Under the pieces are notes generated by a model, which was given only the letters and a program-made list of their open reading frames with translations, did no database searches and was not told the DNA's origin. DNA of 64,000 nucleotides, taken from NCBI GenBank assembly GCA_030998015.1, contig JARWMV010000010.1:62001-126000 (forward strand), given 5' to 3'. The position numbers and the translations under genes were made by a program. This document shows, one piece after another, positions 38,808 to 57,631 of this stretch (the stretch's first letter is position 1; the number at the start of each line of letters is the position of its first letter). The stretch comes from Ceratorhiza oryzae-sativae. Its lineage: Eukaryota > Basidiomycota > Agaricomycetes > Cantharellales > Ceratobasidiaceae.

Positions 38808-40795
38808 ATGGTGTCCTCTATGGGATCATATCTTTTCCATCTGATGCAGTAGTATAAGCCATCTTTCCTTTGTTCCCAGTTGACAATCTTCTCAACTTTG
38901 TATTCCTGTTTGCCTTCCTCAGTCGTTACTGGTGCTGGCTTGCTTTGTTTCCTGTTGAAATCCTTATCTTTCTTGAAGGGTGTGAGAAGGTTGATGTGGA
39001 TGATATTATGGATCTGCATGGTCATGGGAAGCTCAAGGCAATACACATGGGAAGAGATTTTTTCTGATATGATGGGAAACAGGCCTATCCTTTTTTTCTC
39101 TAGTTGTTTGGTTGGGTGCTGTGTTTTGTTGTTGGCAGTGTTTAGCCACACCAGATCTCCCTTCTGCAATTCCATGGCTGGCAGTACTTCAGCTGTCCTG
39201 TGATATTCCATGGAGGCTTGGACTTCATCCTGTATGGCCTGCAATTCTTCTGCTGTGTTCTCAGCCACTAGTGATGCAGTGTTGATGTCTAGGTTATCCC
39301 ATCTTGGGTTAGTGCCCTAGACTGTGTGGAATGCAGTTTTCCTAGTTGTGGAGTTGATTTGGTTGTTATGGCAAAATTCTGTTATTGGTAGCCATTGGAC
39401 CCAATTGTGTTGCCTGTAATTGCAGTATGACCTAAGGAATCCTTCCAGCCATTGATTTGTCCCCTTGGATATGCTGTCTGTTTCAGGGTGGTACAGTGTG
39501 GAGAAGTAGGGTTCTATTCCTACCTTTTGATAGTCGGCTTTCAGGAATTGGCTGTTGAAGGTGACCCTGTGATCCAACACCATTGTCTTGGGTAGGCCAT
39601 GTAGCCACCACACCTCCTTGACAAATATGTCTGCTACATATACTTGTTGTGTCCCTCTGGATGCTCCCTTGCAGAACACTTAAGTAGTGGCTGCATTGAT
39701 GGTTTGGTGTTATGTGGTAAGTATTGAGTGTTCTAGTTACAGTGTTTGCTATGGTCTATGGTGGTTGATAAGATAAAACAAGCTGAGGTGTCCAGTCTTG
39801 CTTTATCCCCCTTATATACCTGTGGCTGCAGTGGCTGCAGATGTCTTATCTAAGCACAGTCCACAGTAGGTACAGGTTATATACAGTACTATGGGTTAGG
39901 TAATTGTTTATCTTAAGTTTGTGCAGCTCCAATTCTTATAGAGCTGTGCAAGGTCCCAGGGTCACATGATTTAAGCACTGAGGTCATGTGACAACTTGCT
40001 CCTCACTCCAAGTAACATGGGAGAGACATGCTGGAGCAAGTTCAGGGTAACCACCATAAGTGCCAGGTAAGCACCAAGGTCACGTGACCTTGTTTATTAT
40101 GGCTTGTTCTGCTTCAGGACAAATGCCATAAATCTGTAAAATATTTGGTTACTCTGTTATGTCTGTTTGACAGGTCATAACACTATTGCATTGATGGCCA
40201 CATTGAAAGGGGTGAAATGGGCTAGCCTGGAGAAGCAGTCTGTTACCACAAAGATGCTATCAAATCCCTCTGATTCAGGGAGTTTGACAATAAAGTCATA
40301 GGCTATGTCCTCCCAGGGCCTTTCTGGAATTGGTAGGGCTTTGATGGGTGCTTTTGTTTTGTGTCCTTTACTCTGCTTACAGGTTTCATAGGATTTGGTG
40401 TACCAGTTGACTTGTACCCCAATCCCTGGCCAGTAGAATCTTCTGGAAATGAGTTTAAGGGTCCCTGCTTGGCCTTGGTGGCTGGCTATGGGGGAGTCAA
40501 GGTTCATATCCAGGATTCTGAGATTTGTGTCCTTGTCTTCATGGATCATGATTTTCCCTTCATACCATAGGAGGTTATGCTTCCAGTCATACTTGTCATA
40601 TCACTTCCTGACTGTGGGCAGTAGGGAGTCCTTGGACTGTACAGAGAGGATGAGGGCCTGTAGTCCATCATCCTCTTCCTGACATTCCCTTATTTTGGAA
40701 ACAAGGTCTAGGTACAACTCTGCTTTGAATCTGATGAATTTCTCTGGGGGAATCATGATTTGATCAGGGATGACATGTGGCTTGTGGTCAGTGTG
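38808..40795 (-). pseudogene. B' fragment: RNase H end, integrase, chromodomain
   Basis: Minus-strand pol related to element B but distinct from it. It includes the zinc-binding integrase part (40549-40300, ASHQGQAGTLKLISRRFYWP and CKQSKGHK). The integrase core is split by the LTR at 39645-40182. The C-terminal part and a chromodomain (39268-38808, YKVEKIVNWEQRKDGLYYC) follow. It is cut on the left by C3 and on the right, inside the RNase H/integrase linker (HTDHKPHVIPDQIMIPPEKF), by the A2 LTR. Few frameshifts remain apart from insertions and isolated stops. Confidence 0.8.
39645..40182 (-). repeat. Solo B-family LTR
   Basis: 538 bp, TGTTGTGTCCCTCTGG to GGTCATAACA. The flanking pentamers ATACT and CTATT match at three of five positions. 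Removing the LTR and one pentamer restores an uninterrupted integrase reading frame, so it is probably a solo insertion whose duplication has decayed. Confidence 0.85.
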
Positions 40796-42049
40796 TATTA
40801 CAGGTCAGGGTACACATGGATATCTAGAGCTTAAGCAAATATAGATATGTTAGTATACACTAATCATACTCAATATTTCTTAGACTAGAGTAAGAAGGCT
40901 CAAAGTAGTTGCAATGTGATCAAGTAGCACTCAAGGTAGTCTTAATCTTTCATAGTGTAAACTCACTAATTTATAGGTATAAAGAGCAAGACTACTATGG
41001 TCAGGTTCCCTTAGATATCTTAAATGTAGTTCAGCCCTAGTCACTGGGACTAACTGATACTAATCTTAATACTCGACTTAACCAATAGCTTATAGGATAG
41101 ATGGTGGGCTGCCTAATGTGTGTACTTCCTCAGCTACAGGTACTTAGATTTCCTCTAATAGCTGGTACTTAATGTCATGCTCAATCAGGCAATATTGTAT
41201 CCTTATATATCTCTGTATATAAGATACAATGAATCAGACAGTATATAACTAATATGGTACTTTATTCCTCAGTACTAGTATTATAAGAAATCACACACAG
41301 ACAAGAGAAAAATAGGAAGAGAAAAGAAACCAATAACCAGTCTGGGTTGAGTAAGAGTAGGAGGGGGGATGGTCTAGAAGGGCCTCAGAGTGCAATCATC
41401 AAAAGAGGGTACTGCTATACTTGGGGTACACCCTAGACCAGTATAGGATAAGAGAGTAAAGACAGGGTGTGGATTGAAGGCATTGATGTATCTGAGACCT
41501 GCTATTGGCTTGTAGATCATATTATCATAGTCCATACATGTAATGAATGGAGGCTACATATCAATGAGTCATAAAGTGAGTCAGAGAAGCTTCTGGATCA
41601 ATTTGGAAGGCTCTCCTGACTGACTGGAGTCATTAGATCTTGATTGATGGACCAGTACAATCCTAATGATCTTTGGGCCATTCCAGTGTGAGGATCTGGT
41701 GGATTGCAACAATCTTCAGGCAGCAGATACTGCTGAAGATTAGCTATCGATAGAGCATAAGATCACTTTGATAGCATAAGCAGTTGCCAAGATATGAGCA
41801 GTGCAATGTTGTAATCGATATCTCCTGATAAGAGGAAATATTGCAACCTCTATATCTCCCTGAGTTCTTAAGATAAAATCATGATAAAATATGTGTTGGA
41901 AAGAGGAGAATTTATAATATTCAATGGACCACCAATAGTACAAATTCAGATGCATACAAATTCATTTAATTTCAAGAAAAATTACAGAGGCATCACTTGA
42001 CATTGGCAAAGCAGACTAAAATAATAGAAAATGTTAGTAATCCATAACA
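40796..42049 (-). repeat. A-family LTR, 3' LTR of A2
   Basis: 1,254 bp; its outer end is TATTACAGGTCAGGG (the family has TGTTACAGG). It is followed on the right by the complement of the polypurine tract (TAGCCCCCCCAG). It is the most CpG-decayed A-LTR, for example at 41675-41740. The region equivalent to the TATA box has been lost by a deletion near 41390. Confidence 0.9.
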
Positions 42050-42119
42050 TAGCCCCCCCAGTCTGGTATGTCAACTCACATTAGAGAGAATCATATCCCT
42101 CATCATCAGAGCTGATGTA

Positions 42120-43563
42120 CAGTGGGCAACAAATTAAATGGGACATGTGACCATCTGATAGAGAATCAACTGTAAAAGATGAAGGATAGACAATATCAGA
42201 CTCATGTGTTGGTGGAATATATAGCTATATGCCATATGATTTCCCTGGCAAAATTTCAGGACAACAGCTTGACTCTATGGCAAGATAATGATTGGAGAAA
42301 TTTTTGGCTGTCCCATTTGATTTGACATTTTGTACCTGGATGCTCATGCTGGGTAAACACCAGCTAGTCTGCTCATTTCCTGGACAATTTATCTAGAAAA
42401 AATATGCCAGGCATCTTTTAAACACCATATGAGTATGTTTTCAGAGTTTCAGCAAGTTGGGATGCACTATTAGAAAGTTATAGGCTGTTCAAGATGCGAG
42501 GTTTGCATGCTTTCCCACCCCTTGTTTCACAGTGATTTAGGCAGTTCATCTAATACAAATGACATTAAGACATTCAATGGCCATTTATAAGCTCTAAATG
42601 CATGACTGAAACCAGCTAAGAGGCACATACAGGAGTGGAAGTAGCTGGGATACATTTCCATGCATACACCCACTGGAATAAACCAGTCATGCTGAGGGCA
42701 GGAGTTCAGCTGGAAGTCTAAAAGCTACATGGATTATAACACCCCTGGGAGGGAATCTTCAATCTAAGTTTCAAGGGGACAGGGCAAAGACAAGGAAAGT
42801 TACAGACCATGCAGTACAAAAATTGGACTTTTTGATCAGATTTACTATGAGATTGGAGACAATTTGCACTGCATGGTCTGTAACTTTCCTTGTCTTTGCC
42901 CTGTCCCCTTGAAACTTAGATTGAAGATTCCCTCCCAGGGGTGCTATAATCCATGTAGCTTTTAGACTTCCAGCTGAACTCCTGCCCTCAGCATGACTGG
43001 TTTATTCCAGTGGGTGTATGCATGGAAATGTATCCCAGCTACTTCCACTCCTGTATGTGCCTCTTAGCTGGTTTCAGTCATGCATTTAGAGCTTATAAAT
43101 GGCCATTGAATGTCTTAATGTCATTTGTATTAGATGAACTGCCTAAATCACTGTGAAACAAGGGGTGGGAGAGCATGCAAACCTCGCATCTTGAACAGCC
43201 TATAACTTTCTAATAGTGCATCCCAACTTGCTGAAACTCTGAAAACATACTCATATGGTGTTTAAAAGATGCCTGGCATATTTTTTCTAGATAAATTGTC
43301 CAGGAAATGAGCAGACTAGCTGGTGTTTACCCAGCATGAGCATCCAGGTACAAAATGTCAAATCAAATGGGACAGCCAAAAATTTCTCCAATCATTATCT
43401 TGCCATAGAGTCAAGCTGTTGTCCTGAAATTTTGCCAGGGAAATCATATGGCATATAGCTATATATTCCACCAACACATGAGTCTGATATTGTCTATCCT
43501 TCATCTTTTACAGTTGATTCTCTATCAGATGGTCACATGTCCCATTTGATTTGTTGCCCACTG
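42120..43563. mobile_element. Tc1/mariner-type foldback element, 1.44-kb near-perfect palindrome
   Basis: Two arms of about 705 bases (42120-42825 and 42860-43563) are inverted copies with only a handful of differences, around a loop of about 34 bases. The ends are CAGTGGGCAACAAATYAAAT, flanked by TA on each side (42118-42119, 43564-43565), the target duplication typical of Tc1/mariner. No transposase frame is visible. It is inserted in the last codons of A2 ORF5. Confidence 0.92.
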
Positions 43564-44478
43564 TAAATGTGCTCCCTTTCCTTTCCTTTGTTGTTAGGAC
43601 AAGGCTCAGGAGTACTGGGAGGTGAAGGAGGGCAGGAGCCACTGAGAGTCTCAGAATCTGAATCTTCATCTCCAAGAGAAGGCTCAGGGCTCAAAGAAGG
43701 TTCTGCAGCCTCAGAGACTTTATCCCCAAAGAAAACTCTAAGGCAAGCATTAAGCTTCTTATCTTTCTGCCCTGCCCACCATTCTTCATATTTAGCCTTA
43801 GCTGTCCTATGAGAATATTCCTCTGATAGGGCCACCAAGTAGCACTAATTAAGAGTCAGTAAATGAAGAAAGCATGAACTAGGAGGCACCTACTACATTG
43901 TTTCCCCAAACAGCAGGGACTCCATCATCTGCAGGCAACTCCCAGCTCCCATAAGGGTGTTCAAGCAAATACTTATCCCAGGTGCACTGGGCAAATGCTA
44001 GAATCCCACAGGGCACAGGAGGAAGATCCAGCAAGTGTCCTTCATCTGGAAAAAGCCCTCTAGAGCAAGCCAGATGATTCAAGGAACTCAGCATGTGATT
44101 GCCCCAGATTTGGAGACAAACTACTGTGTAGATCAGGTCAGAGAAGGAATCAAAAGGCTCATGCCAGTCCTGGATGTGAAAACCTTTTTCTGGCTCTAGA
44201 GTGTAAACAATATTTGCCACCCTAAATTGTGCATACAGAGGGGAGTCCACTCCAAAGCTGTTCAAAGCCTCAGCCTTCTTAAGGCCTCCATCATTGCAGA
44301 AAGTGGCAACACAGTCTTGCACTTGCAATAGAGCATCAGTAAGAGCATGAATGGTTTGGTCACTCAGGTACCAGCCATCCTTATACCAGCTCTGGCCTAC
44401 ACTGTGCTGTACTTCAATGCCCTCCCTGAACTTGCACTCAAGGATGGATGGGCCACTGAAAAACTTACTCTCCCCTTG

Positions 44479-45788
44479 TGTTATGGATCACTAACATTTT
44501 CTATTATCTTAGTCTGCTCTGCCAACCTCAAGCGATGCCTCTGTAATTAAATTGTGAAATACTTGAATTTGTATGCACTCCAAATTGTACTATTTTACGT
44601 TTCATTAAATAGTACAAATTTCTTGCTTTCCAACGCATATTTTATTAAGTTTTTACGATAAGATCTCAGAGAGATACAGAGGTTGCAATATTTCCTCTTA
44701 TCAGGAGATATTGATTACAACATTGCACCACTCATATCTCGGCAACTGCTTATGCTATCAAAGCGATCTTATGCTCTATCGATGGCTAATCTTTGGCAAT
44801 ATCTGCTGCCCAAAGATCGTCGCGATCCACCAGATCCTTGCACCAGAATGGCCTGTAGATCATTAGAATCTTACTGGACCATCAATCAAGATCTAATGAC
44901 TCCAGTCAGTCAGGAGAGCCTTCCAAATTGATCCAGAAGCTTCTCTGACTCACTTTATGACTCACTGAGATGTAGCCTCCATTCATGACATGTATATACT
45001 ATGATAATATGATCTACAAGCCAATAGCAGGTCTCAGATGCATCAATGCCTTTGATCCACACCCTGTCCTTACTCTTTTATCCTATACTGGGCTAGGGTG
45101 TACCCCAAGTATAGCAGTACCCTCTTTTGATGATTGCACTGGCATGCATGTATCTATTTGGCTCTGGAATGCCCTCCTCAGGGTATAAAAGGACCTCCTC
45201 TGAGGCCCTTCCAGACCACCTTCCCTCCTCTACTCAACCCAGACTGGTTATTGGTTTCTTTTTCTCTTTCTATTTTCTCTTGTCTGTGTGTAATGTCTTA
45301 TATAACTAGTACTGAGGAATAAAGTATCATATTAGTTATATACTGTCTGAGTCGTTGTATCTTATATACAGAGATATATAAGGATACAATATTGCCTGAT
45401 TGAGCATGACATTAAGTACCAGCTATTAGAGGAAATCTAAGTACCTGTAGCTGAGGAAGTACACACATTAGGCAGCCCACCATCTATCCTATAAGCTATT
45501 GGTTAAGTCTAGTATTAAGATTAGTATCAGTTAGTCCAAGTGACTAGGGCTGAACTACATTTAAGACATCTAAGGGAACCTGACCATAGTAGTCTTGCTC
45601 TTTATACCTATAAATTAGTGAGTTTACACTGTGAAAGATTAAGACTACCTTGAGTGTTACTTGATCACATTGCAACTACTTTGAGCCTTCTTACTCTAGT
45701 CTAAGAAGTATTGAGTATGATTGGTGTATACTAACATATCTACATTTGCTTAAGCTCTAGATATTCAAGTGTACCCTGACCCATAACA
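44479..45788 (+). repeat. Solo A-family LTR
   Basis: 1,310 bp, TGTTATGGATCAC to CCATAACA. A perfect 5-bp target duplication CCTTG lies at 44474-44478 and 45789-45793. TATA box at 45183-45190. Inserted in A2 ORF5. Confidence 0.95.
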
Positions 45789-45907
45789 CCTTGATGCATG
45801 ACACTAGCAAACACATGGAAGTGCTTGCAGGACAGGATCAGGTTGATGCTGGCCATAATCTGGACATCATTCAACATGGAGGGAGGAGCCTGCATGGTGG
45901 AAAGAAG

Positions 45908-46452
45908 TGTCATGACCCTCTGGATGCTTCCTTGTGAAGCACTTAAGTAGTGGCTGCATTGACGGTTTGGTGCTATGCAGTATGTATTGAGTGTTCTAGT
46001 TACAGTGTTTGCTATGGTCTATGGTGGTTGACAAGATAAAGCAAGCTGAGGCGTCCAGTCTTGCTTTATCCTTCTTATATATGCCTGTGGCTGAGGTGAC
46101 TGTGGATGTATTATCTAAGCACAATCTGCAGTAGGTGTAGGTTATATACAGTACTATGGTTTAGGTAATTGTTTATCTTAAGTTTGTGCAGCTCTGAATC
46201 TTATAGAGCTGTGCAAGGTCTGAGGGGTAAGTGCTGAGGTCACATGATCCTGTGGTAAGTGCCAAGATCACGTGACAACTCACTCCTTGCTCCAAGTAAC
46301 AATGGAGAGAAATGCTGGAGCAAGTTCAGGGTAACCACCATAAGCACCAAGATCATGTGACCTTGTTTATGGCTCATTCTGCTTAGGAAAAATGCCATAA
46401 ATCCATAAACATATTTGGTTACTCTGTTATGTCCATTTGACAGGTCATAACA
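45908..46452 (-). repeat. B-family LTR, 3' LTR of element B
   Basis: 545 bp, TGTCATGACCCTCTGG to GGTCATAACA. It contains CACGTG (46267-46280) and CACATG/CATGTG versions of the same motif. Confidence 0.95.
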
Positions 46453-46701
46453 TCATCCCCCCCTTTGGACATGTCTTGGGGGACCTTGAGACATGGTTTA
46501 GATCCTTATGCAAAAGGAATCTCATGCACCTAGGAGGTTAAGGGTGCTGGACTTGAACCAACAACCTTTTGGCTGATTCAGTATTGTTCAATGAGGTCAG
46601 GCTGAGTCAGGCTAGACCCCTTAACCTCTTCGTTACAAGAGATTGTTTTTCTTTTCCTTGTTGTGGAGGTTATTCAGGGGTGAGGAGTTGTCTGCTTCTT
46701 C
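46453..46701. other. Region between Rep pseudogene and 3' LTR of B
   Basis: Holds the polypurine tract (46453-46468 as its complement) and a tRNA-like patch (about 46545-46630), with no supported gene. Confidence 0.5.
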
Positions 46702-48078
46702 TCAGAATGCCCCAACTGTTTGGATAGGCATAGCAGAAGTTGTACAATAAGGTAAATTATTCTGAGGGAATACAAAGAATGGTTTTCCTCCTGAGTACAC
46801 CCATTCTACATTTCTTGATACCCATAAGTCCCCTTCTTCCCCCTCTATGTCTGACCAACACTTCATGATTGCTGACTGGCTATTTCCCAGAATAACTGTC
46901 AGTCGTACCTTCATCGATTTTACATGTGTGTACCTGCCTGTGAAGTCTGCCTTGTACTGGCTCAGGGCCTTGAGTGAGTACTTCCCATTTTACTGGACCA
47001 TGTCATCCAGGATCCAAATGTCAGCATCTTCTGACAAGTTGCCCACATTCCACACATTGCACATCTGGCTGTGGCAGCCCTTGGATTGTGCATACACCTT
47101 TTTCCCTGTTCCAGTTTCTCCTTCTATCACCAGGATGCAATGGCGCACCCCTCTTCCCCTCTTCTCAACCTCCTTGGCAAACCATCTGTCTGCTTGGTCA
47201 ATGTGCTCCTGGTCTTCCAGGACCTCTAACTCCACAGGGATTGCAGGCATGCAACCCTGGTCTTCCTTGTATGTGTACTTGGCATATGCTTGTACTGAGT
47301 TCCACATCATCACCATCTGGAGGGGGCAGAGGTGCTTGAACACCTGGTAGTACTCCTGTTTTGTTGCCAAGGCAACAATCTCCATCCCATCCTCCAAGTC
47401 TGCCTCCATCCTTGACCATTTTCCACCCTTTCCCTTCACCAATATCTCCTCCAACCTTTCCAAGGTCAGGTCCCCCACCATCAAATCCTCTATCTCCTCA
47501 CCATTGGCTCCAACATCCTTCCAGAGATAGTTGAAGGTGTCCCTTGCTGGGTTACCTCCTGGCCCATCCTTGAGGTCTTTGGGCTGTATGTTGGGGTGTT
47601 GCCCCTTGAAGTCCCAGAACCCTGCGTTCTGGGTGTTCCACCTGCCCTTCTGTTCCTGACTGATGGAGAGGGCATGGACATGCAGGGGCTGGGTCAGGTT
47701 GTAGTTCGGCTCCTCCAGGTTGTGCTGTTCAACCATGGCTAAGGTTGCCCAGTGATTGGGCCAATGGCAGCAGAACACCTTGTATCAGGTGGCAAGCCCA
47801 CTTGAGGGCTGATCACATAGCTTCAACCAGGTCAGCAGCACTGCCCTGGTCTGGACACGGAATTGGGGGGCCAGTGCGGTTTCAGTTGGCTCTTCAGACC
47901 TGTGATCCATCAGCATAAGCTGTGTAGAAGCAGGTGAGGGGGCTTGGCTTGATTCCGAGGGCGCCAGCAATGGTGATGCCAACCTCTGCCCTGTGCTTGA
48001 TTCATTTGGCTGGGGTGTTCCCATGTTCAAGCCATCTTTGCTTAGCATTGTTGGTGTTTTTAGAGGTAGATGTGTCAT
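46702..48078 (-). pseudogene. CRESS-DNA-type replication initiator (Rep) pseudogene
   Basis: 458 codons from the ATG at 48078, one continuous frame with two in-frame stops: TGA at codon 98 (47785-47787) and TAA at codon 363 (46990 region). All hallmark motifs are present in order: a motif I-like AVLLTW near 79-84, motif II HVHALS near 133, motif III YLWKD near 184 (Tyr and Lys as in YxxK), Walker A GETGTGKK near 320, Walker B WILDD near 355, and a motif C-like VILGNS near 395-400. Reps nick an origin and unwind DNA for rolling-circle replication; relatives occur in ssDNA viruses, plasmids and as fossils in fungal genomes. The first 70 residues are Ser/Pro-rich and not typical. It lies between pol and the 3' LTR of element B, in the same sense. 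TATA-like GGGTATATC lies about 50 bases upstream. It is broken and not functional as it stands. Confidence 0.82.
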
Positions 48079-48510
48079 GTGGGGAGGGCATGAAATGATA
48101 GCCCCTTTTACCCCCAAAGGTGTCCCCTAGATATACCCTCTCTGGTTGTTGTGATCATGTGGTTTCCTGATGTAGGCTTGTGCTGGTTATGACACATCTC
48201 CAAGGGGTGCCCTTCCTGCATTCCCCCACATTGGCCTTATTCCTCACTATGCTTGGGGCCTCCACTCCTCCACTTCGGTTGGTGCCCCCTCTCCGACACC
48301 TCTGGTAGTTAGGGGATAGTGTATATTCATGTGACTAGGCTATGTCATGTGATTCCTGTGCTTTGTTGTTTGTTTTCTGGCAGATGGTCACGTGTCCATT
48401 GGTGTCACCTGACCAGACTTTGTTTTGATGTTTGTGCAAGTTATTGTGTTGCACTGTGATTTTTTAATGTTTGTGGTTTTGTTGTTTCCCTTCCTCATCC
48501 CATCTTTACT
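48079..48510. other. Divergent intergenic region between Rep and the antisense gene
   Basis: 430 bases between two diverging starts. It was searched by eye for a CRESS origin (stem-loop with NANTATTAC); none is convincing. The TATA-like motif GGGTATATC (minus, near 48131) points to Rep. T-rich sequence precedes the plus-strand start. Copies of CATGTG/CACGTG occur near 48340-48395. Confidence 0.45.
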
Positions 48511-49043
48511 ATGTGTGTTATTTCCCTTAACTACAATCCCCTTGACTGCACCTGCTGGTCTCTCCCTGAGGGGGAGTACTGTGCCTACTGCAATGCCATG
48601 TGCAACGCCTCCCTTCAAGACTTCTATGGAGGTGTTGGGGATTGGTTCTTCTGTGGGGTGCCAGGTACATGTGCCTGTTCTTTGTCAGTCTCATGTTGCT
48701 AACTTGCTCTGTAGAAGAGCGCATACTCCTTGATGGTCAGGCCCATGAGGCCACCCTTGAGTGTGTCTGGGCACTTGTTGATCAGGACTACAAGTCCTTT
48801 GAGGAGCAGTCTCACCAGGCTGCTCTTGCTGAATTCTTCAAGGAGGGCTCTGCCCCCCTGTTTGATGAGGCTTTGCCCTTTGCAGCATCTGGTTCTGGGT
48901 GTTTCCAGAACTACATGGCTGACTTCCCAGGGGGGGAGGCCCCTTGGCTGCAGCCCACTACCTGGTCAGTTGTTCAGACCAATAAGAAGGATAAAAAAGG
49001 TAAGAAGCCCTACACCTGGCCCCTCAAGGGCAAACATAAATAG
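48511..49043 (+). CDS. Antisense, intron-containing Cys-rich gene inside element B (160 aa)
   Basis: Not a recognised family. Exon 1 is 48511-48664, the intron is 48665-48714 (50 bp; GTACAT donor, textbook TGCTAAC branch site, CTGTAG acceptor), and exon 2 is 48715-49043. The spliced frame is open for 160 codons. The N-terminus has clustered cysteines (CTCWSLPEGEYCAYCNAMC) that could bind metal, a central acidic/helical part (DQDYKSFEEQSHQAALAEFF), and a basic end (NKKDKKGKKPYTWPLKGKHK). AATAAA follows the stop by about 30 bases (near 49074). It is read against the retrotransposon, divergent from Rep and convergent with ORF3. The open frame despite decay of its neighbours suggests recent acquisition or selection. 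Confidence 0.6.
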
Positions 49044-49122
49044 AGAGTAAAATGTATTAGGTTTGACATGTAAAAATAAAACTCTTATACATTTGAGAAA
49101 AAATCCATGGGAGGCAGAGTGG

Positions 49123-50095
49123 TCATATGGGGGCTGGTTCCAACAGTGGCACCTCCTCCAGAGCTTCGACAAGCTCATTTTCCCACCAGTCCCAGTCCTG
49201 TTTGGCTTCCTCTGCAGCTGGGTCCAGGGTGGGTTCCTTTATCACTGGCTTTGCTTCTTCCTCAGCCATGACCAGTGATTCTAGGCTTGATGTAAGGCTC
49301 ATCATATCTGTGTTGTAATTGGTGTTTTTGTTTGGGTGCACCTTCACCCAATTTTGGAAGTCACTCATGTTTGCCTGCTTTGTCCTGATATAGAGATGTT
49401 GTGCCAGAATTCCTGCATTCTGGCATCAAGGGTAACTCAATTGCAGAAGCACCTCAGAAGTGCTGATTGGTCAGCTGATGGAATAGAGTTACCCTTGATG
49501 CCAGAATGCAGGAATTCTGGCACAACATCTCTATCCTGATAGCAGTAAACATCTCATCAGTGGTAGTTGCTTCAAGCAGTCCCACATATGGTGCAGCTGG
49601 TGTCAACTTCCACTCTTCCAACAATGCCTTGGCCTGGTGCTCCACCTCCCAGTCCCCCCTGTCTGCCATTTGGCCTGCAGCCCTCCTCTGTTGTCTTGCT
49701 GCCTTGGCCACCATGTCAACTGTTGGTCCCACAATATCATCAATGACATACATCAGTGTTCTTAGCAAGGTGTTTCTTGTTGTTGGCTTCCAGCTTCCAT
49801 GCCATATCAGGACCCCTAACCTGGGATCCAGGTACTTGTCATTGTTGATCCAGTTCCTTTCATCCCTTAACTTCTTTGGGATGTACACTAGGTTAGCCCC
49901 TGGCAACAGTCGCTTGGCATACCTCTGGGTGTCTTCCACACTGGAGCAGTACATCCCTAGTTTAGGACAATTTTCCCTGCCAGGGTAGGGTGCTGGCCCC
50001 CTAGTGGTGGGTGGCTGCCAAAGTGGGGCCACCTGATTTTCAGCAAGTGGTATGTAACAGTTGGGATGTGTGACTGGGTGAGTGATGAAAGGCAT
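49123..50095 (-). pseudogene. Element B ORF3, interrupted only by a MITE
   Basis: Not a recognised family. It starts MPFITHPVTHPNCYIPLAEN 87 bases after the pol stop. The frame is open to the MITE at 49533 and resumes in frame after 49383 (MSDFQNWVKVHPNKN) to the stop at 49123. Without the MITE and one copy of its duplication the frame counts 273 codons. Features: LGMYCSSVEDTQRYAKRL, a central LGVLIWHGSWKPTTRN, an Ala/Arg-rich helix (VAKAARQQRRAAGQ), and an acidic C-terminus (EEVPLLEPAPI). It is co-oriented with pol and Rep. It may be a third retroelement protein or part of the Rep-bearing cargo. Confidence 0.6.
49391..49533. mobile_element. hAT-type MITE (subtype b), 143 bp
   Basis: Same length as the MITE at 28445-28587 and near-identical at its ends (TAGAGATGTTGTGCCAGAAT); inner arms GGTAACTCAATT / AATAGAGTTACC. 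Perfect 8-bp duplication TCCTGATA at 49383-49390 and 49534-49541. Disrupts ORF3. Confidence 0.94.
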
Positions 50096-50182
50096 GTTTT
50101 GGGGTTTTTGCAGGTGTATTGTGGTGCAAGTGAGGTGGTAGAGCAGGCTCTGGCCTTTCTTAGGTATCCTGGATGGCTCCTT

Positions 50183-53100
50183 TTAAAGCTTTCCAGGTCC
50201 TTGTTTGGTTCTCTTTGGCCTGCCTTTCAAGTCACCTGAGTGCTGACTTGTCTTGACTGGCATTGGTGCATCTGGTAAGCACCTTTGCAAGTCATTTAGA
50301 GCCTCTTTCATGTCAGCAAACTTGCTGGCCTGTTCCATTGTGTCTTCTATTGGGTCATAGCCCTTCCATCTGATTTGGTAAAACAGCTTGCCATTCCGCC
50401 ATTCATAATTTGCAATGTGGTCCACCTCATACTCCTCCTCTCCTTCTTCTGTTATGATTAGTGGTGGTTTGGCCTGCCTTCTTTGGAAGTCTTTATCTTC
50501 TGTGAATGGTGAGAGGAGATTTACATGGAATACATTGTGTACACATATGGTTTTAGGTAGGTCCAGGCAATACGCACAGGACAACATCTTTTCTGTGATT
50601 TCAAAAGGGCCCCCTTTTTGGTTGTCCAATTTCTTGGAAGGTCTCTTGGACAAGAGGTTTGTTAGGAGCAGCCAAACCTTGTCCCCTACCTTGAATTCCT
50701 TCCCTTTCTTTTCCATTTGTTGGTGTAATTCCATTGAGGCTCTTGCCTCATCCCATACCTTTTCCATTTGATTATGCATGTTGTCTGCAGTGGGTGCCTC
50801 AGACACTTCTTCTCCCCCTCGGACAACCCATCTTGGGTTTTTTCCATATACTGTTTCAAACAGGGTTTGTCCTGTTGTAGCATTTATGTGGTTGTTATGG
50901 CAGAATTCAGCAATGGGTAACCATTTTACCCAATCATCTTGTCTATAATTGCAGAAGGTTCTTAAGAACCCTTCTACCCATTGATTTGTTCTTTCCAACA
51001 GTCCATCTGTTTCTGGATGGAAGGTGGTGGAGAATCTGGGCTTTGTCCCAATTCCCTTGTATAGGGCTTTTAGGAATTGGCTGTTAAAGGTTGGCCCTCA
51101 GTCTGAGACAGTGGTTTCTGGGGTCCCGTGATGTCTCCATACCTCCCTTATGAATATTTCTGCCAGTTCTTCTGCATTGGTGCTCTCCAGACATGGTACA
51201 AAATGGGCCTGCCAGGAGAAGCAATCTACAACTGTCAAGATGCTGTTGTACCCCTTTGAGACAGGTAATTTGACAATGAAATCATATGCAACATCTGCCC
51301 ATGGTTTCCATGGGATTGGTAAGGGCTTCAGGGGAGCACCTTGTTTGTGTCCTTTGCTTCTTTGACATGTTTCACAAGATTCCACATATCGGTTTACTTG
51401 GGCCTTCATGCCTGGCCAGTAGTAATCCCTTGATAGTAATTCTAGTGTTCGGGCTTGTCCCTGATGACCTGCCACAGGGGCATCATGGCACTCCTCAAGG
51501 AGGCTCAACCTCAAGTCCTTGTCATCTGGGATGTAGAGCCTATTGTCATACCTTAATAGGCCCTCCTTCATTTCATACTGTCTAAATTCCTTCTGTACTG
51601 AGGGTGGCAGTTGTTCTTTATTTGCCACACTCAGCCTTAAGGCTCTGATAGATTTGTCTTCTTCCTGAGCTTCTTTAAGCTCCTCCCAGAAATTCCCCTG
51701 TACCTCTGCCTTGAAACCTATGAACCTTTCTTCTGGAATGATGATCTGTGGTTCCATAGGGGTGTCCCCATGTTCACTCCTCCTGGAAAGGGCATCTGGC
51801 TTCTGTGAGAGTTTCCCTGGTCTATACACAATCTGAAAATTGAAGGGTGCCAGAGTGAGATACCATCTGGCATGCCTTCTATTCCACATCTGGGCATTTT
51901 GCCAGTACTGGAGGTTCCTATGGTCAGTTTATATCACAATAGGTTCTTCTGTCCCTTCTAGGTATAACCTCCAGTGCTCTAGGGACTTAACAATTGCAAG
52001 CAACTCCTTGTCATAGGTGTCATAATTTTTCTCTGGTGGGGTGAAGCTCTTTGATAGGAAGGCAATTGGATGCAATCGGTTGTCATCCCCCTTTTGGCTT
52101 AGTACTGCCCCCATGGCCACTCCTGAGGTGTCTGTTTCCAGTATGTATGGCTTGTTTGGGTTTGGGTGGATTAAGACCGGTTCTCTTGCTACTGCTTCTT
52201 TAATAGCTTCAAATGCTTCTTGTTGTTTTCTTTCCCACAGGAATTTGACATCTTTTTGAGTGAGATCTGTGAGGGGTTTGGCTAAGGTGCTAAACTTCTC
52301 TATCCACCTTCTATAGAACCCCACGAAGCCTAGGAATGCTTGGACTTCTTTTACTGTGTTAGGTTCTGGCCATTCTAGTACTGCCTTTACCTTTTCCTTT
52401 TCCATCAACATCCCTTCTGGGGATATGACAATTCCAATGAAGCTTACCTCCTTCACAAAGAACTGACACTTGTGTGGTTTGAGGAAGAGGTTGTTTTCCC
52501 TCATTCTTCTTAACACTTCCCTGACATGTTGTATGTGTTCTTCCCTGTTTCTGGAAAACACTAGTACATCGTCCATGTAGATTACCACATAATCATCTAT
52601 TATGTCATGGAACTTTTCCATCATGAACCTTGTAAAGGTTCTTGGTCCTTCTTTTACTCCAAATGGCATGACCAAGCATTCAAACTGGCCTTCTCCTGTC
52701 CTGAAAGCTGTTTTCCATTTGTCTCCCTCTTTTACCCTGATATTGTTGAACCCCTATTGAACGTCCATTTTTGAATAGATGGTTGCATCCTTCAGCCTCT
52801 CAATCAATTCTACTTGAATTGGAAGTGGAAACCTGTCTGGCTTGGTGATGTCATTCATCTTACAGTAGTTGACTACCAATCTAAGCCCTCCATCTGCTTT
52901 GTTCACATAGAAACAGGGTGCAGCTACAACTGACTGGCTGGGCCTTATTTTTCTGTTTCTTAGTTCCTCCTCTAGGTACTCCCTGAGCGCCTTTGTTCCT
53001 GCTGGCGACATACTGTACCTCTTTGCAGGCTTTGGCAGCTCTGCTCCCTTGATCAGGTCCATTTTGAAGTCCAGGTTTCCTCAGTCAGGTGGAAGTTCTC

Positions 53101-53873
53101 AGAAACCTTCTTCCCCAAACAGGTCTTCAAAATCCCTAAATTCTTCTGGGATTTGTAGGCTTTCACTTGCTGCCCTTGCCTTGATTTCATCTGGGTATGA
53201 GATGGTAAGGTCTTTCCAATCTATGATAGGTTCTGCTTCCTCAAGCCATTCTTTCCCTAGGACTATGTCTGTGTCGCCTAGGGTCATCACATAAAGGGAG
53301 CATTTCAGTGTGTTTCGTTCCACTTCAATATTTAGTTCTGCCCTTTCTTCTATGGCATCCATGATTTCATTTCCATCAATGGCCACAATTGATTTCTTGT
53401 GTTTGAGGGGAGTGGTCAGAATCCCCTTTTCCCTTGAATAGGCCTTATCAATGAAGTTGGTTCAAGATCCTGAGTCAATCAGTGTCTTTGCTGGTTCCAT
53501 GATTCCCTCTACTGTAGTGTATATTATTGATTGATTACTAGACTTCTTGAGGTAACATACATCTGCAGTAGGGGTTATATTGGGGTCCTCCAACATGGAA
53601 GTGGTAGGACCAATTAGTTTTCCGACTCAGAGCTGCTTTCTTCTTCAACCTGTCTGCTGGCCTTCCCTTGTATCTTAGCTTTGTTGTAGGTCCACTGGCC
53701 TTGGCAGTCCTTCAGGACATGCCCTGATTTACTGCATTTGATACAGAGTCCTTCTTTCCTTTGCCTGTCTTTTTCACTGTTTGGTATCCTTACCATGTTG
53801 TTAGTGTGGGTATTCCCCTGTTTGCCACTGGTCCCTGAAGGCTTGTTCCCCCTGGTTTGTATTTTGCTGGTGC
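50183..53873 (-). pseudogene. Element B gag end and pol: protease, RT, RNase H, integrase, chromodomain
   Basis: It begins with the gag zinc knuckle CIKCSKSGHVLKDC (53796-53614). Protease-like sequence (53386-53190, LGDTDIVLGKEWLEE) leads into RT (53062-51929), where the catalytic YMDD (VIYMDDVLVFS) is intact. RNase H includes LETDTSGVAMGAVLSQ. The integrase has its zinc region (CETCQRSKGHK) and core (VAYDFIVKLPVSKG). The C-terminal chromodomain includes YEVDHIANYEWRNGKLFYQ. From 53386 to 50183 the frame is never shifted. The only breaks are stops: two TGA near 53080-53096, TAG near 52750, TAA near 51930 and TGA near 51100. Each is explicable as one transition from Arg, Trp or Gln codons. It was thus intact until base-substitution decay. 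Confidence 0.9.
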
Positions 53874-55183
53874 TGTTACTGGTCAGGGTACACTTGAATA
53901 TCTAGAGCTTAAGCAAATGTAGATATGTTAGTATACACTAATTGTACTCAATACTTCTTAGACTAGAGTAAGAAGGCTCAAAGTAGTTGCAATGTGATCA
54001 AGTAACACTCAAGGTAGTCTTAATCTTTCACAGTGTAAACTGACTCATTTATAGGTATAAAGAGCAAGACTACTATGGTCAGGTTCCCTTAGATATCTTA
54101 AATGTAGTTCAGCCCTAGTCGCTTGGACTAACTGATACTAATCTTAATACTAGACTTAACCAATAGCTTATAGGATAGATGGTGGGCTGCCTAATGCATG
54201 TACTTCCTCAGCTACAGGTACTTAGATTTCCTCTAATAGCTGGTACTTAATGTCATGCTCAATCAGGCAATATTGTATCCTTATATAACTTCTGTATATA
54301 AGATACAATGAATCAGACAGTATATAACTAATATGGTAATTTATTCCTCAGTACTAGTTATATAAGAAATCACACACAGACAAGAGAAATAGAAAGAGAA
54401 AAAGGAACCAATAACCAGTCAGGGTTGAGTAGGGTAGTGAAGGTGGTCTGGAAGGGCCTCAGAGGAGGTCCTTTTATACCCTGAGGAGGGCATTCCAGAG
54501 CCAAATAGATGCATGCATGCCAGTGCAATCATCAAAAGAGGGTACTGCTATACTTGGGGTACACCCTAGTCCAGTATAGGATAAAAGAGTAAAGACAGGG
54601 TGTGGATCGAAGGCATTGATGCATCCAAGACCTGCTATTGGCTTGTAGATCATATTATCATAGTATATACATGTAATGAATGGAGGCTACATCTCAGTGA
54701 GTCATAAAGTGAGTCAGAGAAGCTTCTGGATCAATTTGGAAGGCTCTCCTGACTGACTGGAGTCATTAGATCTTGATTGATGGTCCAGTAAGATTCTAAT
54801 GATCTTCGGGCCATTCCGGCGCGAGGATCCGGTGGATCGCGACGATCTTCGGGCAGCAGATACCGCCGAAGATTAGCTATCGATAGAGCACAAGATCGCT
54901 TTGATAGCGTAAGCGGTTGCCAAGATATGAGCGGTGCGGTGTTGTAATCAATATCTCCTGATAAGAGGAAATATTGCAACCTCTGTATCTCTCTGAGATC
55001 TTATTGTAAAAACTTAATAAAATATGCGTTAGAGAGCGGGAAGTTTGTACTATTTAATGGAATGGAGAATATTACAATTTGGAGTGCATACAAATTCAAG
55101 TATTTCACAATTTAATTACAGAGGCATTGCTTGAGGTTGGCAGAGCAGACTAAAATAATAGAAAATGTTAGTGATCCATAACA
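53874..55183 (-). repeat. Solo A-family LTR
   Basis: 1,310 bp, TGTTACTGGTCAGGG to CATAACA on the plus strand. A perfect target duplication GGTGC lies at 53869-53873 and 55184-55188. It is the most CpG-rich A-LTR (CCGGCGCGAGGATCCGG region at 54817-54835), so probably the youngest. It splits the gag of element B. Confidence 0.95.
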
Positions 55184-56763
55184 GGTGCCCAGGTTGAATT
55201 TGATGAGTTGCTGGTCCTTGCATTCATTTTCTGGTTTGCAAACTGCATGTCATCCATTTTGCTGGCAAAGTCGATTAGTTGATTTAAGGTATATGATGGA
55301 CCTTCAGCCTCATTTGCCAGTACTTTAATCCTTAAGATCTCTTGTCATACTTTGGGTTTTAACCCTTCCCTTAATTGGTCCTTGAGGGCTTCCTGGTTCC
55401 AGTCTACCTCTTGGATCAGGATCCAGAATTGGGTAGCATAATCCAATGCACTCTTGGTTTGTGTTAATTTCCTTAGTTTCTGGATGGTCTTTTCCTTTAT
55501 GACTGGGTCATTAAAAGCATCCAGGAATCCCTTCCTGAAATCCTTCCAGGATGCAAGGATACCTGTGCGTTTGCCTGCTAGTAGTTTCCAGTGGTAAGGT
55601 TGTGCCCAGTTTGCTGCTTCCCCATCCTCCATGTTCATTAACACAGCAGATATCTTTTTTTGGTTGTCAAAGGCTGATTTGTCATAGGCAGCAAAGAAAA
55701 GTTCCATGCCAATTATGAAGTTCTCTGCTTCCTTCCCTTTTTTCCCATTAAATTTGCTGGGTCTCCCTAGTCGCGCCTCCTTAGGAGTGTGGGTTGTGGT
55801 AAGGGTAGGTTGGTTTGCTCAGGATGGAGGTTCTGTTCAGGGTCTTATTGTGGACTCAGCCTGGAAGGTTCTTCCCAGAAAGGGTGTTTGTACTGGGGAG
55901 GCTGAGGGGGATTGTGAGGGGCTTCCTATGACCACCCTAGTTCTTCCCCTGGTCTCTTCTGTCCTTTCCCTTGGCCTTCCTGCTTCAGTTGTTTTCTGGA
56001 GCTCATTTCCTAGATCAGTTACCTGTTGTTCTAGTGCGGTCAGGATCTCCCCTGTGTTTTCAGTTTTCTTCTCTAAGCTTTCAAGCTTTTGCTCTTGCAT
56101 TCCAAGTACCCAGTTTATTTCCATGGAGATGTCCTTTAATTCTTTTATCATGTTCCCCATTTCTGCTTTTAGGTCATCCTGGTTCTCTGCCACATAGAGG
56201 ACATTTTTGTTGGATGTTTCCATTGATCTTACCATCCAGTCCACATTTCCTTCTTGCCAGGTTAGTGATATTTGACACTGATTTATACCTGTGATTGCCT
56301 TTTCTAGTTCCCTATGGTTATTGTCTCTAAGTTCCTTGAGCCCTGCCCTGATGGCAGTGGCAATGGTGTGAATAGGGTTGGCAGTGGTTATGGTTCCAGG
56401 GCCTGGCTGGGGTTGTGTCCTTGCCTCTTCTGCCAAGGCTGTGCCTTGTTTGTATATGGTTCAGGTCATATCTTCTACCTCATCCCTCTCTGCATTTGAG
56501 ATATCTTCTGGGTCTGGATTTATCAGGTGAATTGGCAGTTGAGGGCTGCAGAGTGGTATTCCCCCTATTTGCCCTCCCAGGATGGGGGCCTGAGTGGGGT
56601 TAGGTTGAGCCACTGGTTGTGGGTTTTGTGGCAACCCCCCTGGCATTCCTTGGAGGGTCTTGTCTGGGTTACCTTCAGCCTCTGGGGGAGTAACAGGTTT
56701 GGGTGATTGTGGTCTACTATTTGCCACTCTGCTTTGAGATTGAGTTTGTGGTCTCTGTGACAT
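55184..56763 (-). pseudogene. Element B gag (main part)
   Basis: Starts MSQRPQTQSQSRVANSRPQS at 56763 with a Pro/Gln-rich N-terminus. It continues through a coiled-coil-prone section (56436-55840, KLESLEKKTENTGEILTALEQQV) into the capsid domain (about 55790-55345, RLGRPSKFNGKKGKEAENFI and WKDFRKGFLDAF). The same frame holds throughout; one stop near 56461, two TGA near 55820-55836 and a stop at 55345 interrupt it. The zinc knuckle lies beyond the solo LTR at 53796-53614. Gag would form the particle. Confidence 0.8.
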
Positions 56764-56883
56764 AGTTTCTTTGTGTTCTCTTATGTATCACAGGAGTTAG
56801 CTGGTTTCTTGTGTACTCAGCCCTTAGTATCTGTGTAGTATACTTATGTTTGCCACTAGTTAAGTTAAGAGCTTGCTTTATAA
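56764..56883 (-). other. Leader of element B
   Basis: 120 bases between the 5' LTR and the gag start. The first bases after the LTR (TTATAAAGCAAGC on the minus strand) do not look like a tRNA-primed site. Confidence 0.5.
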
Positions 56884-57541
56884 TGTTGTGACCCTCTGGA
56901 TGCTTCCTTGCAAAGCACTTAAGTAGTGGCTGTGTTGATGGTTTGGTGCTATGCAGTATGTATTGAGTGTTCTAGTTACAGTGTTTGCTATGGTCTATGG
57001 TGGTTGACAAGATAAAGCAAGCTGAGGTGTCCAGTCTTGCTTTATCCTTCTTATATATGCCTGTGGCTGAGGTGACTGTGGATGTATTATCTAAGCACAA
57101 TCTGCAGTCAGTGCAGGTTATATACAGTACTATGGTTTAGGTAATTGTTTATCTTAAGTTTGTGCGGCTCCAAAGCTTATAGAGCTGTGCAAGGTCTGAG
57201 GGGTAAGCACTGTGGTCACATGATCCTGCCATAAGCGCCAAGATCACATGACAACTTGCTCCTTGCTCCAAGTAACAATGGAGAGAAATGCTGGAGCAAG
57301 TTCAGGGTAACCACTGTAAGCGCTGAGATCACATGATCCTGCTGTAAGCACCAAGATCATGTGACAACTCACTCCTCACTCCAAGTAACAAGGTAGAGAA
57401 ATGCTGGAGCAAGTTCAGGGTAACCACTGTAAGCACCAAGATCATGTGACCTTGTTTATGGCTTGTTCTGCTTAGGAAAAATGCCATAAATCTGTAAACA
57501 TATTTGGTTACTCTGTTATGTCTGTTTGATGGGTCATAACA
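56884..57541 (-). repeat. B-family LTR, 5' LTR of element B, with 113-bp internal duplication
   Basis: 658 bp against 545 bp for the 3' LTR. The difference is exactly one 113-bp tandem repeat: a unit starting at 57239 (CAAGATCACATGACAAC) repeats from 57352 (CAAGATCATGTGACAAC). Confidence 0.93.
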
Positions 57542-57631
57542 AGAAGATGAGAATATGAAGATAAGAGAGTAGTAGAGCTGTAGAACTGGAGGGTGTTGAA
57601 CTGCTGAGGGGAGAGGGCTCTCAAAGGCTAC

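What the first reader, a model, noticed from the sequence alone, without database searches (positions are those of the whole stretch)
46702..48078. A CRESS-DNA Rep gene carried between pol and the 3' LTR of a complete retrotransposon
Seen: one frame holds all rolling-circle and SF3-helicase motifs. It lies inside an LTR pair with matching AGAAG duplications and upstream of a proper polypurine tract. Known: Rep fossils occur in fungal genomes, but usually as isolated inserts. Inference: Rep was captured by, or inserted in, an LTR element and could have been copied with it. Because the insertion is inside the TSD-bounded element, it may have spread with the family.
Basis: partly seen in the sequence, partly recalled or inferred. 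Interest (0 to 1): 0.88.

Follow-up and report, generated by a model that had tools for sequence, protein, structure and literature searches.

The report
Retrotransposon that carries viral replication gene
In what is likely a fungal genome, a family of copy-and-paste jumping elements carries, in dozens of checked copies, an extra gene that resembles the DNA-copying (Rep) gene of small circular DNA viruses; the gene was likely captured long ago, has been copied along with the element, and is predicted to help the element multiply.

Summary
A worn Ty3/Gypsy chromovirus-type LTR element (45908-57541, minus strand, AGAAG duplications) carries a Rep-like frame between pol and the 3' LTR. All rolling-circle and SF3 motifs are present in order, but with two in-frame stops. 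Profile support is weak (best Gemini_AL1_M E=0.001, in a relative, below cut-off).

Rep spread with the family. Two 26-base Rep tags mark 147 places (87 subtype A, 60 subtype B); an integrase tag marks 137. Of 100 integrase places listed, 77 have a Rep tag 3.0-4.4 kb downstream on the same strand (random-offset control 0.26 per 100). No clean pre-capture element was seen among the copies checked.

Rep was under selection: between subtypes dN/dS is 0.07 (helicase), 0.13 (central), 0.18 (endonuclease), against 0.77 in the N-terminus. Rep belongs to a three-gene module with orphan gene Y and an antisense gene X with a predicted intron. Some Rep relatives have an inferred intron at a site where Rep here has none. 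This fits capture as DNA, then passage through RNA.

Best reading: a resident, formerly functional Rep gene of an LTR retrotransposon; its biochemical role is inferred. The nearest precedent found is a Rep-bearing DNA transposon in truffle.

The parts
45903..45907 (.). left target-site duplication AGAAG
   Evidence: read from sequence
45908..46452 (-). 3' LTR (TG..CA, 545 bp)
46453..46470 (-). polypurine tract next to 3' LTR
46765..48048 (-). Rep-like gene (427 codons in the frame of relatives; two in-frame stops in this copy)
48049..48510 (.). intergenic region between the divergent genes Rep and X; no TAATATTAC-like nonanucleotide found
48511..49043 (+). gene X, antisense to the element: predicted exon 1 48511-48664, predicted 50-nt intron 48665-48714 (GT..GCTAAC..TAG), exon 2 48715-49043, about 160 aa
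49123..50095 (-). gene Y (orphan, about 273 aa in other copies), split here by a hairpin insertion
49390..49534 (.). later hairpin (MITE-like) insertion, absent in 15 of 15 fetched copies with matches on both sides
50183..50998 (-). integrase C-terminal part with SH3 and chromodomain
51098..51889 (-). integrase core region (by eye)
51929..53080 (-). reverse transcriptase and RNase H (two frames)
53099..53461 (-). protease-like region (by eye)
53614..56787 (-). gag region with CCHC zinc knuckle (by eye), interrupted by a solo LTR
53874..55183 (.). later solo-LTR insertion of another family
   Evidence: L019 joins 53873 to 55184
56864..56883 (-). predicted self-priming primer-binding site (ATAAAGCAAGCT, complementary to an LTR stretch)
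   Evidence: by eye
56884..57541 (-). 5' LTR (658 bp, with an internal 113-bp tandem copy)
57542..57546 (.). right target-site duplication AGAAG

Best explanation
The window holds a worn copy of a Ty3/Gypsy LTR retrotransposon family in which a Rep-like gene with geminivirus/genomovirus-type motifs sits between pol and the 3' LTR; this gene was likely captured once in an ancestor, has been copied with the element into at least 77 tag-checked places (likely about 150), and is predicted to have served the element as a nicking and unwinding enzyme on its DNA. Shown here: the position, the spread, the ordered motifs, the two subtypes and the low dN/dS. Inferred: the capture brought in, as DNA, a divergently arranged pair (Rep and antisense gene X, perhaps with Y). 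Passage of the element through RNA then removed a sense-strand intron from Rep, while the antisense intron of X survived. Proposed mechanism, untested: Rep nicks an origin-like site in unintegrated element DNA (cDNA or LTR circles), joins its tyrosine to the 5' end and drives rolling-circle copying with its SF3 helicase, multiplying templates for expression or integration. I give this specific role about 35%. An anti-silencing or regulatory role, as known for geminivirus Rep (recalled), is the next choice.
For: Spread: 87 + 60 Rep tags and 137 integrase tags, reversed-pattern controls 0. 77 of 100 listed integrase tags pair with Rep 3.0-4.4 kb downstream on the same strand; random offsets 0.26 per 100, opposite strand (mirrored side) 0. 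Rep is joined to this LTR in 20 of 20 fetched copies, in 18 to within 6 bases of its outer end.
Selection: subtype A versus B over 84 pairs gives dN/dS 0.17 for all of Rep, and 0.77 N-terminus, 0.18 endonuclease, 0.13 central, 0.07 SF3. Motif III YLWK is kept in 25 of 25 copies and HPNI in 24 of 25. Y 0.20-0.36 and X exon 2 0.23-0.50 between subtypes.
Family: motifs II, III, GRS, Walker A, B and C fit the definitions and the genomovirus table in print; Gemini_AL1_M in 7 of 16 family members, best E 0.001.
RNA passage: five metagenome relatives and two AG-Ba gene models carry GT..AG-compatible inserts at VAR^(Y/F)EAFC (P0021, P0040, P0066, P0071, P0073; P0010, P0032). Here the site is continuous in P0058, L032 and the window, and none of the 38 other full-length matches exceeds 1375 bases. 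The X intron keeps GT and TAG in 21 of 21 covered copies and GCTAAC in 19 of 21.
Against: No member reaches a Pfam cut-off for a Rep domain. Other families score as often or better: nSTAND3 in 11 of 16 members (best E 0.043), Transpeptidase E 0.0028 against Gemini_AL1_M 0.019 in L029, Jiv90 0.0048 against 0.053 in P0023. No named virus among 69 homologues, though only the 7996 best candidates were scored; no Rep among PDB sequences. The only structure model was unusable (pLDDT 34). No TAATATTAC-like origin in the intergenic region of 22 copies; hairpin signal weak (z -1.9 for one stretch, about 0 for another). 24 of 25 copies have stops in Rep, so present activity is doubtful. Motif I has W and K where the printed consensus has Y and Q. 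Walker B reads ILDN, not ILDD, in 10 of 25 copies. Within subtypes dN/dS is 0.40-0.41. Pol is about equally alike in A- and B-bearing copies among the 40 best matches while Rep differs by about 23%, so module and pol have partly separate histories. Several relatives lack the intron (P0016, P0018). No expression or circular-DNA data were available.
Confidence: 0.72

Rival explanations
1. The Rep/X/Y module is a selfish replicon that uses the retrotransposon as its vehicle; Rep works on the module's own origin, not for the retroelement.
For: Rep and X are divergently arranged around an intergenic region, as Rep and capsid genes are in ambisense genomoviruses (layout in print). The module is more diverged than pol in B-type copies and mosaics exist. 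Relatives with an inferred intron suggest forms not recently passed through spliced sense RNA.
Against: In 20 of 20 copies fetched by Rep match, the element's LTR is attached; no origin-like nonanucleotide was seen; no free module was found, though no search was aimed at one.
Confidence: 0.2
2. Rep is passive cargo: it landed in a master element and was merely carried along.
For: 24 of 25 examined Rep copies have stops; within-subtype dN/dS is only 0.40-0.41.
Against: dN/dS of 0.07-0.18 across the enzyme domains between subtypes against 0.77 in the N-terminus; motif III unchanged in 25 of 25. Differences within subtype A are mostly transitions (ts/tv about 15), which fits wear after insertion (inference).
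Confidence: 0.08
3. Subtypes A and B acquired their Reps in separate captures from related donors, so the selection seen acted outside the retroelement.
For: Among the 40 best pol matches, A- and B-bearing copies are both 94-96% alike, and the one further B copy with readable pol is 93% (L049), while Rep differs by about 23%.
Against: A and B Reps (4 and 2 rows) form one group against the other relatives (100/100). The same gene order is found in the B copies. X and Y are diverged too in L029 and L032, Y in L031, and the LTR in L044 (86% against 89-93% in A copies); mosaics exist, such as L030. This fits old sister subfamilies with later exchange of pol.
Confidence: 0.12
4. The protein is not a Rep at all but another P-loop ATPase with look-alike motifs.
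For: Weak profile hits only; nSTAND3 in 11 of 16 members at E down to 0.043; an ORC1-type hit at E 0.0066 in P0016.
Against: Seven motifs in the right order, including the GRS-like stretch after motif II and YxxK before a Gemini_AL1_M-like central domain that runs up to Walker A; the competing hits do not explain the N-terminal half.
Confidence: 0.06

Closest known systems
Geminivirus-like DNA transposon of Tuber melanosporum (Liu et al. 2011, PMC3198968; passages and section 8 read)
   Same: a geminivirus-like Rep gene amplified to dozens of copies (42 Rep genes or remnants) as part of a fungal transposable element; Rep interrupted there too
   Different: there 37-bp terminal inverted repeats and transposase ORFs, no obvious target duplications; here an LTR retrotransposon with TSD, gag-pol, PPT and two further genes
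Genomovirus and geminivirus Rep (motif table in PMC10821283, definitions in PMC11052389; passages read)
   Same: motifs II, III, GRS-like, Walker A, B and C; a divergent gene on the other strand
   Different: motif I W/K instead of Y/Q; below Pfam cut-offs; no capsid gene or TAATATTAC origin found; carried in an LTR element
Ty3/Gypsy chromoviruses (Tf1/sushi-like self-priming type, recalled)
   Same: LTRs, gag, protease, RT/RNase H, integrase with chromodomain, PPT, predicted self-priming PBS
   Different: extra 3.7-kb block with Y, antisense X and Rep between pol and the PPT
Gain of env by LTR elements on the way to retroviruses (mentioned in PMC10175614, passages read)
   Same: an LTR element gains a foreign viral gene
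   Different: the gained gene here is a DNA-replication initiator, not an envelope gene

Membership tests
CRESS-type Rep (Gemini/Genomo-like) | RCR motif I uuTYxQ | tested here: not met
   LLTWSK/FLTWSK: hydrophobic and T kept, Y to W, Q to K; a TW variant (VFTWNN) is listed for a CRESSV2 Rep in PMC10821283
CRESS-type Rep (Gemini/Genomo-like) | RCR motif II xHxHx and motif III YxxK | tested here: met
   LHVH/LHIH in 24 of 25, YLWK in 25 of 25 copies
CRESS-type Rep (Gemini/Genomo-like) | GRS between motifs II and III | tested here: met
   FWDFEGNHPNI against printed genomovirus FDVDGYHPNI; HPNI in 24 of 25
CRESS-type Rep (Gemini/Genomo-like) | SF3 Walker A, Walker B (uuDDu), motif C (uxxN) | tested here: met
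   GETGTGK in 22 of 25, ILDD in 14 and ILDN in 10 of 25, ILGN in 24 of 25; definitions from PMC11052389
CRESS-type Rep (Gemini/Genomo-like) | profile hit above curated cut-off (Gemini_AL1, Gemini_AL1_M) | tested here: not met
   best Gemini_AL1_M 19.5 bits, cut-off 24 (P0016); Gemini_AL1 own-genome search 0 hits, but the control genomes rang nowhere either
CRESS-type Rep (Gemini/Genomo-like) | HUH and SF3 folds | tested here: inconclusive
CRESS virus genome | stem-loop origin with TAATATTAC-like nonanucleotide | tested here: not met
   none in the intergenic region of 22 copies; other origin sequences not excluded
CRESS virus genome | capsid gene | tested here: inconclusive
   window ORFs of X and Y have no Pfam match up to E 1 and Y no homologue; X was not searched in the large protein set
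Ty3/Gypsy chromovirus | LTR pair, TSD, PPT, RT/RNase H, integrase with chromodomain | tested here: met
Tuber-type Rep DNA transposon | terminal inverted repeats and transposase ORFs | tested here: not met
   element bounded by LTRs with TSD; no transposase family among the eight ORFs scanned

The most novel reading that the evidence does not exclude
A dual-mode mobile element: an LTR retrotransposon that, besides reverse transcription, amplifies its own extrachromosomal DNA by rolling-circle replication with a captured Rep and an associated antisense gene, that is, a stable fusion of a retroelement with a CRESS-type replicon, older than the split of its two subfamilies.
Probability: 0.27. Interest if true: 0.95.

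Novelty: new variant of a known kind. Interest (0 to 1): 0.83.

Why it matters
Rep genes in eukaryote genomes have been described as integrated viral sequences, some of them conserved and expressed (PMC3198968, abstract passage). Here a Rep-like gene has become a standing gene of a multi-copy LTR retrotransposon family and shows an enzyme-like selection signature. That makes a question testable: can an RNA-based element also use rolling-circle DNA replication? It also suggests a route by which single-stranded DNA virus genes persist and multiply in genomes. An intron apparently lost on the sense strand and kept on the antisense strand would be a direct trace of passage through RNA. The full-text searches made (listings seen, in a library that lacks most subscription papers) showed no LTR retrotransposon with a Rep gene.

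Tried and rejected
Single late insertion of Rep in one copy: rejected. Rep-less copies: four integrase copies without the A tag nearby were fetched, and all 4 have a diverged Rep. Of the 12 integrase tags with no Rep tag within 12 kb, 8 were fetched: 2 have diverged Rep (L040, L044), 1 has the Rep N-terminal part followed by another insertion (L045), 4 are interrupted before Rep or run out of the fetched stretch (L039, L041, L043, L046), and 1 is an internal deletion from within pol to the LTR that also removes the chromodomain (L042); none is a clean empty site. One more of the 12 (C4:368168) has a Rep match. The remaining 3 of the 12, and the 37 integrase tags not listed, were not examined.

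Looked for viral relatives: IMG/VR by alignment (0 relatives) and by two degenerate motif patterns (5 and 1 matches on contigs of 11-93 kb, not followed up); plasmids by tblastn (9 weak hits, E 0.1 or more); PDB; PHROGs and NCBIfam. None gave a Rep. A tree against viral Reps was therefore not possible. Y gave 0 homologues. Searching for a B-type element with its own diverged pol: 3 stretches fetched, 1 with pol 93% like the window's, 2 interrupted by other DNA. The intergenic block matches no Rfam family (0 hits in the window) and folds no better than shuffles (z about 0). The other RT matches in the window are distant (51% or less), and I recognised no clear LTR pair for the nearest, so there is no Rep-less outgroup.

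Full report
OBSERVATION. The window (G000:C10:62001-126000 of a 48.8-Mb, 253-contig assembly) holds on its minus strand an LTR element from 57541 to 45908. LTRs, AGAAG duplications and a polypurine tract were read from the sequence. Gag with a zinc knuckle and a protease-like region (by eye), RT/RNase H, and an integrase end with SH3 and chromodomain (Pfam) make it a Ty3/Gypsy chromovirus type. The primer-binding site looks self-priming: ATAAAGCAAGCT beside the 5' LTR is complementary to a stretch of the LTR itself (by eye; the Tf1/sushi comparison is recalled). Two later insertions interrupt this copy: a solo LTR at 53874-55183 (copy L019 joins 53873 to 55184) and a hairpin element at 49390-49534, absent from 15 of 15 fetched copies with matches on both sides. 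That the host is a fungus is inferred from the Rep relatives.

THE REP FRAME. Between the pol end (50183) and the PPT lies about 3.7 kb with three genes: Y (sense), X (antisense) and Rep (sense). The Rep frame runs from 48048 to about 46765 with two in-frame stops in this copy; 1 of 25 copies examined has no stop. Protein searches gave 57 relatives with one window piece and 69 with an alignment of 16 (only the 7996 best candidates scored); those named are Ceratobasidium species, the rest unnamed metagenome-type records, none a named virus. The family alignment shows FLTWSK, LHVHA, FWDFEGNHPNI, YLWK, GETGTGKTAYAR, WILDDM and VILGN. Printed genomovirus motifs are LLTYAQ, THYHA, FDVDGYHPNI, YATK, GPTRTGKTSWAR, AVFDDI/AVFDDM and WCNN/WLSN (PMC10821283, passages; definitions in PMC11052389, passages). 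Profile support is weak: Gemini_AL1_M in 7 of 16 members, best E 0.001 at 19.5 bits against a cut-off of 24; this genome's B-type copies L029 and L031 give 0.019 and 0.023; nSTAND3 scores in 11 of 16 and a few unrelated families score better in single members. The window's own pieces give no Rep family. A structure model failed (pLDDT 34). I therefore call it Rep-like of the geminivirus/genomovirus kind, not a member of a virus family.

SPREAD. DNA of the Rep region has 41 matches in the genome, with 40 of 183 candidates scored. Twenty copies from the top of that list were fetched. In 20 of 20 Rep is joined to this family's LTR (18 to within 6 bases of the outer end). In 14 of 20 homology continues in the same orientation into Y or pol, in L015 across a nested insertion. 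Of the other six, L014 has Y nearby but inverted, L019 has an internal deletion that joins Rep to pol, L017 ends with its contig, and L011, L012 and L026 border other DNA. A 26-base Rep tag occurs 87 times and an integrase tag 137 times, reversed controls zero. Four integrase copies with no such Rep tag nearby were fetched; all four have a second Rep subtype (about 77% DNA identity) in the same place. A tag for that subtype occurs 60 times. Of the 100 integrase places listed (37 were not shown), 41 pair with an A tag and 36 with a B tag at 3.0-4.4 kb, same strand; 11 more have one within 12 kb; 12 have none. Of those 12, 8 were fetched and none is a clean pre-capture site.

SELECTION. Nei-Gojobori counts (own script) on 25 copies: within subtype A dN/dS 0.41, within B 0.40, between A and B 0.17 over 84 pairs. 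By domain, between subtypes: N-terminus 0.77, endonuclease 0.18, central 0.13, SF3 0.07. Wear after insertion should push these values up, so the true constraint is probably stronger (inference). Differences within A are mostly transitions (ts/tv about 15), as expected for methylation damage (inference). Y gives 0.20-0.36 and X exon 2 0.23-0.50 between subtypes, against 0.48 for both within A. A-versus-B dN/dS of pol could not be computed on the stretches held. By identity, pol is 94-96% alike in A- and B-bearing copies among the 40 best matches (a capped list that favours similar copies), so pol and the 3' module have probably recombined. L030 and L031 look like mosaics. In L044 the LTR is also more diverged (86% against 89-93% in A copies), which favours old sister subfamilies with exchanged pol over a second capture.

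GENE X AND THE INTRON ARGUMENT. X is predicted from two frames joined by a 50-nt intron. In 21 copies where the site is covered, GT and TAG are kept in 21 and GCTAAC in 19. X lies antisense to the element, so its intron would not be spliced from the element's RNA. Rep lies in sense and has no intron in the copies read (window, P0058, L032); none of the 38 other full-length matches is longer than 1375 bases against 1377 in the window. Five metagenome relatives (P0021, P0040, P0066, P0071, P0073) have an in-frame insert at VAR^(Y/F)EAFC that begins with C or Y, as a GT donor within the arginine codon would require. Two Ceratobasidium AG-Ba gene models (P0010, P0032) read through a stretch at the same point that fits a roughly 50-nt GT..AG intron. 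Others (P0016, P0018) lack it; for spliced gene models such as P0001 it cannot be told. The introns are inferred from protein letters only. The simplest reading is capture of Rep and X as DNA, then loss of the sense intron by passage through RNA. The tail of AG-Ba protein P0022 resembles X (score 63; best of 1000 shuffles 49), so an X-like gene may accompany Rep there too.

TREE. Thirty-one Rep rows group by source: this genome (A and B together, 100/100), AG-Ba, other Ceratobasidium, metagenome. A and B thus appear to have split inside this lineage. No viral rows could be included.

MECHANISM. The enzyme motifs and the strong constraint on the helicase argue for catalysis on DNA (inference). 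The most economical role is nicking and copying of unintegrated element DNA. No origin-like nonanucleotide was found in 22 copies and folding of the intergenic region is unremarkable, so the target site is unknown. Alternatives are a selfish module riding on the element, or an anti-silencing role.

LITERATURE. The closest precedent found is the Tuber melanosporum DNA transposon with Rep and transposase ORFs (PMC3198968, passages and section 8). A review of element-virus fusions (PMC10175614, passages) describes other fusions; the passages shown name no LTR element with Rep. The full-text searches (listings and abstract starts seen) showed none either; the library lacks most subscription papers.

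VERDICT. What it does remains to be tested.

Noticed in passing
window 42109-43574, within 40795-45789: Near-perfect palindrome: 712-nt arms 99% complementary, 42 nt apart, flanked by an inverted pair of LTR-like repeats of the same family as the solo LTR at 53874-55183.
   Followed up: no
window 49390-49534 and 62489-62626: Hairpin (MITE-like) elements; the first splits gene Y with about 8 bp duplicated, the second is a diverged relative.
   Followed up: partly
Rep N-terminus, e.g. L029:1474-1899, L032:2085-2495; proteins P0002, P0003: A second reading frame overlaps the start of Rep; a stretch like (F/Y)AAYADGSRVRRAD is shared between this genome's frames and AG-Ba gene models. It may be a real overlapping gene or only a by-product of DNA similarity.
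   Followed up: no
L031 intergenic region (about 2110-2560): A GC-rich block between Rep and X appears twice in L031 and once in the other copies printed (by eye); possibly iteron- or promoter-like.
   Followed up: partly
window 48320-48460 and the LTRs: Several CACGTG/CACATG-type palindromes in both the Rep-X intergenic region and the LTRs, which may mean a shared promoter type (by eye).
   Followed up: no
window 49123-50095; L030:180-998: Gene Y has no homologue at E 0.001 among the 972 candidates drawn from 5.8 billion proteins yet shows dN/dS 0.20-0.36 between subtypes.
   Followed up: partly
L030, L031: Mosaic elements with A-like and B-like segments, for instance A-like pol beside a diverged Y in L031, and diverged Rep beside A-like X and Y in L030, suggesting template switching.
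   Followed up: partly
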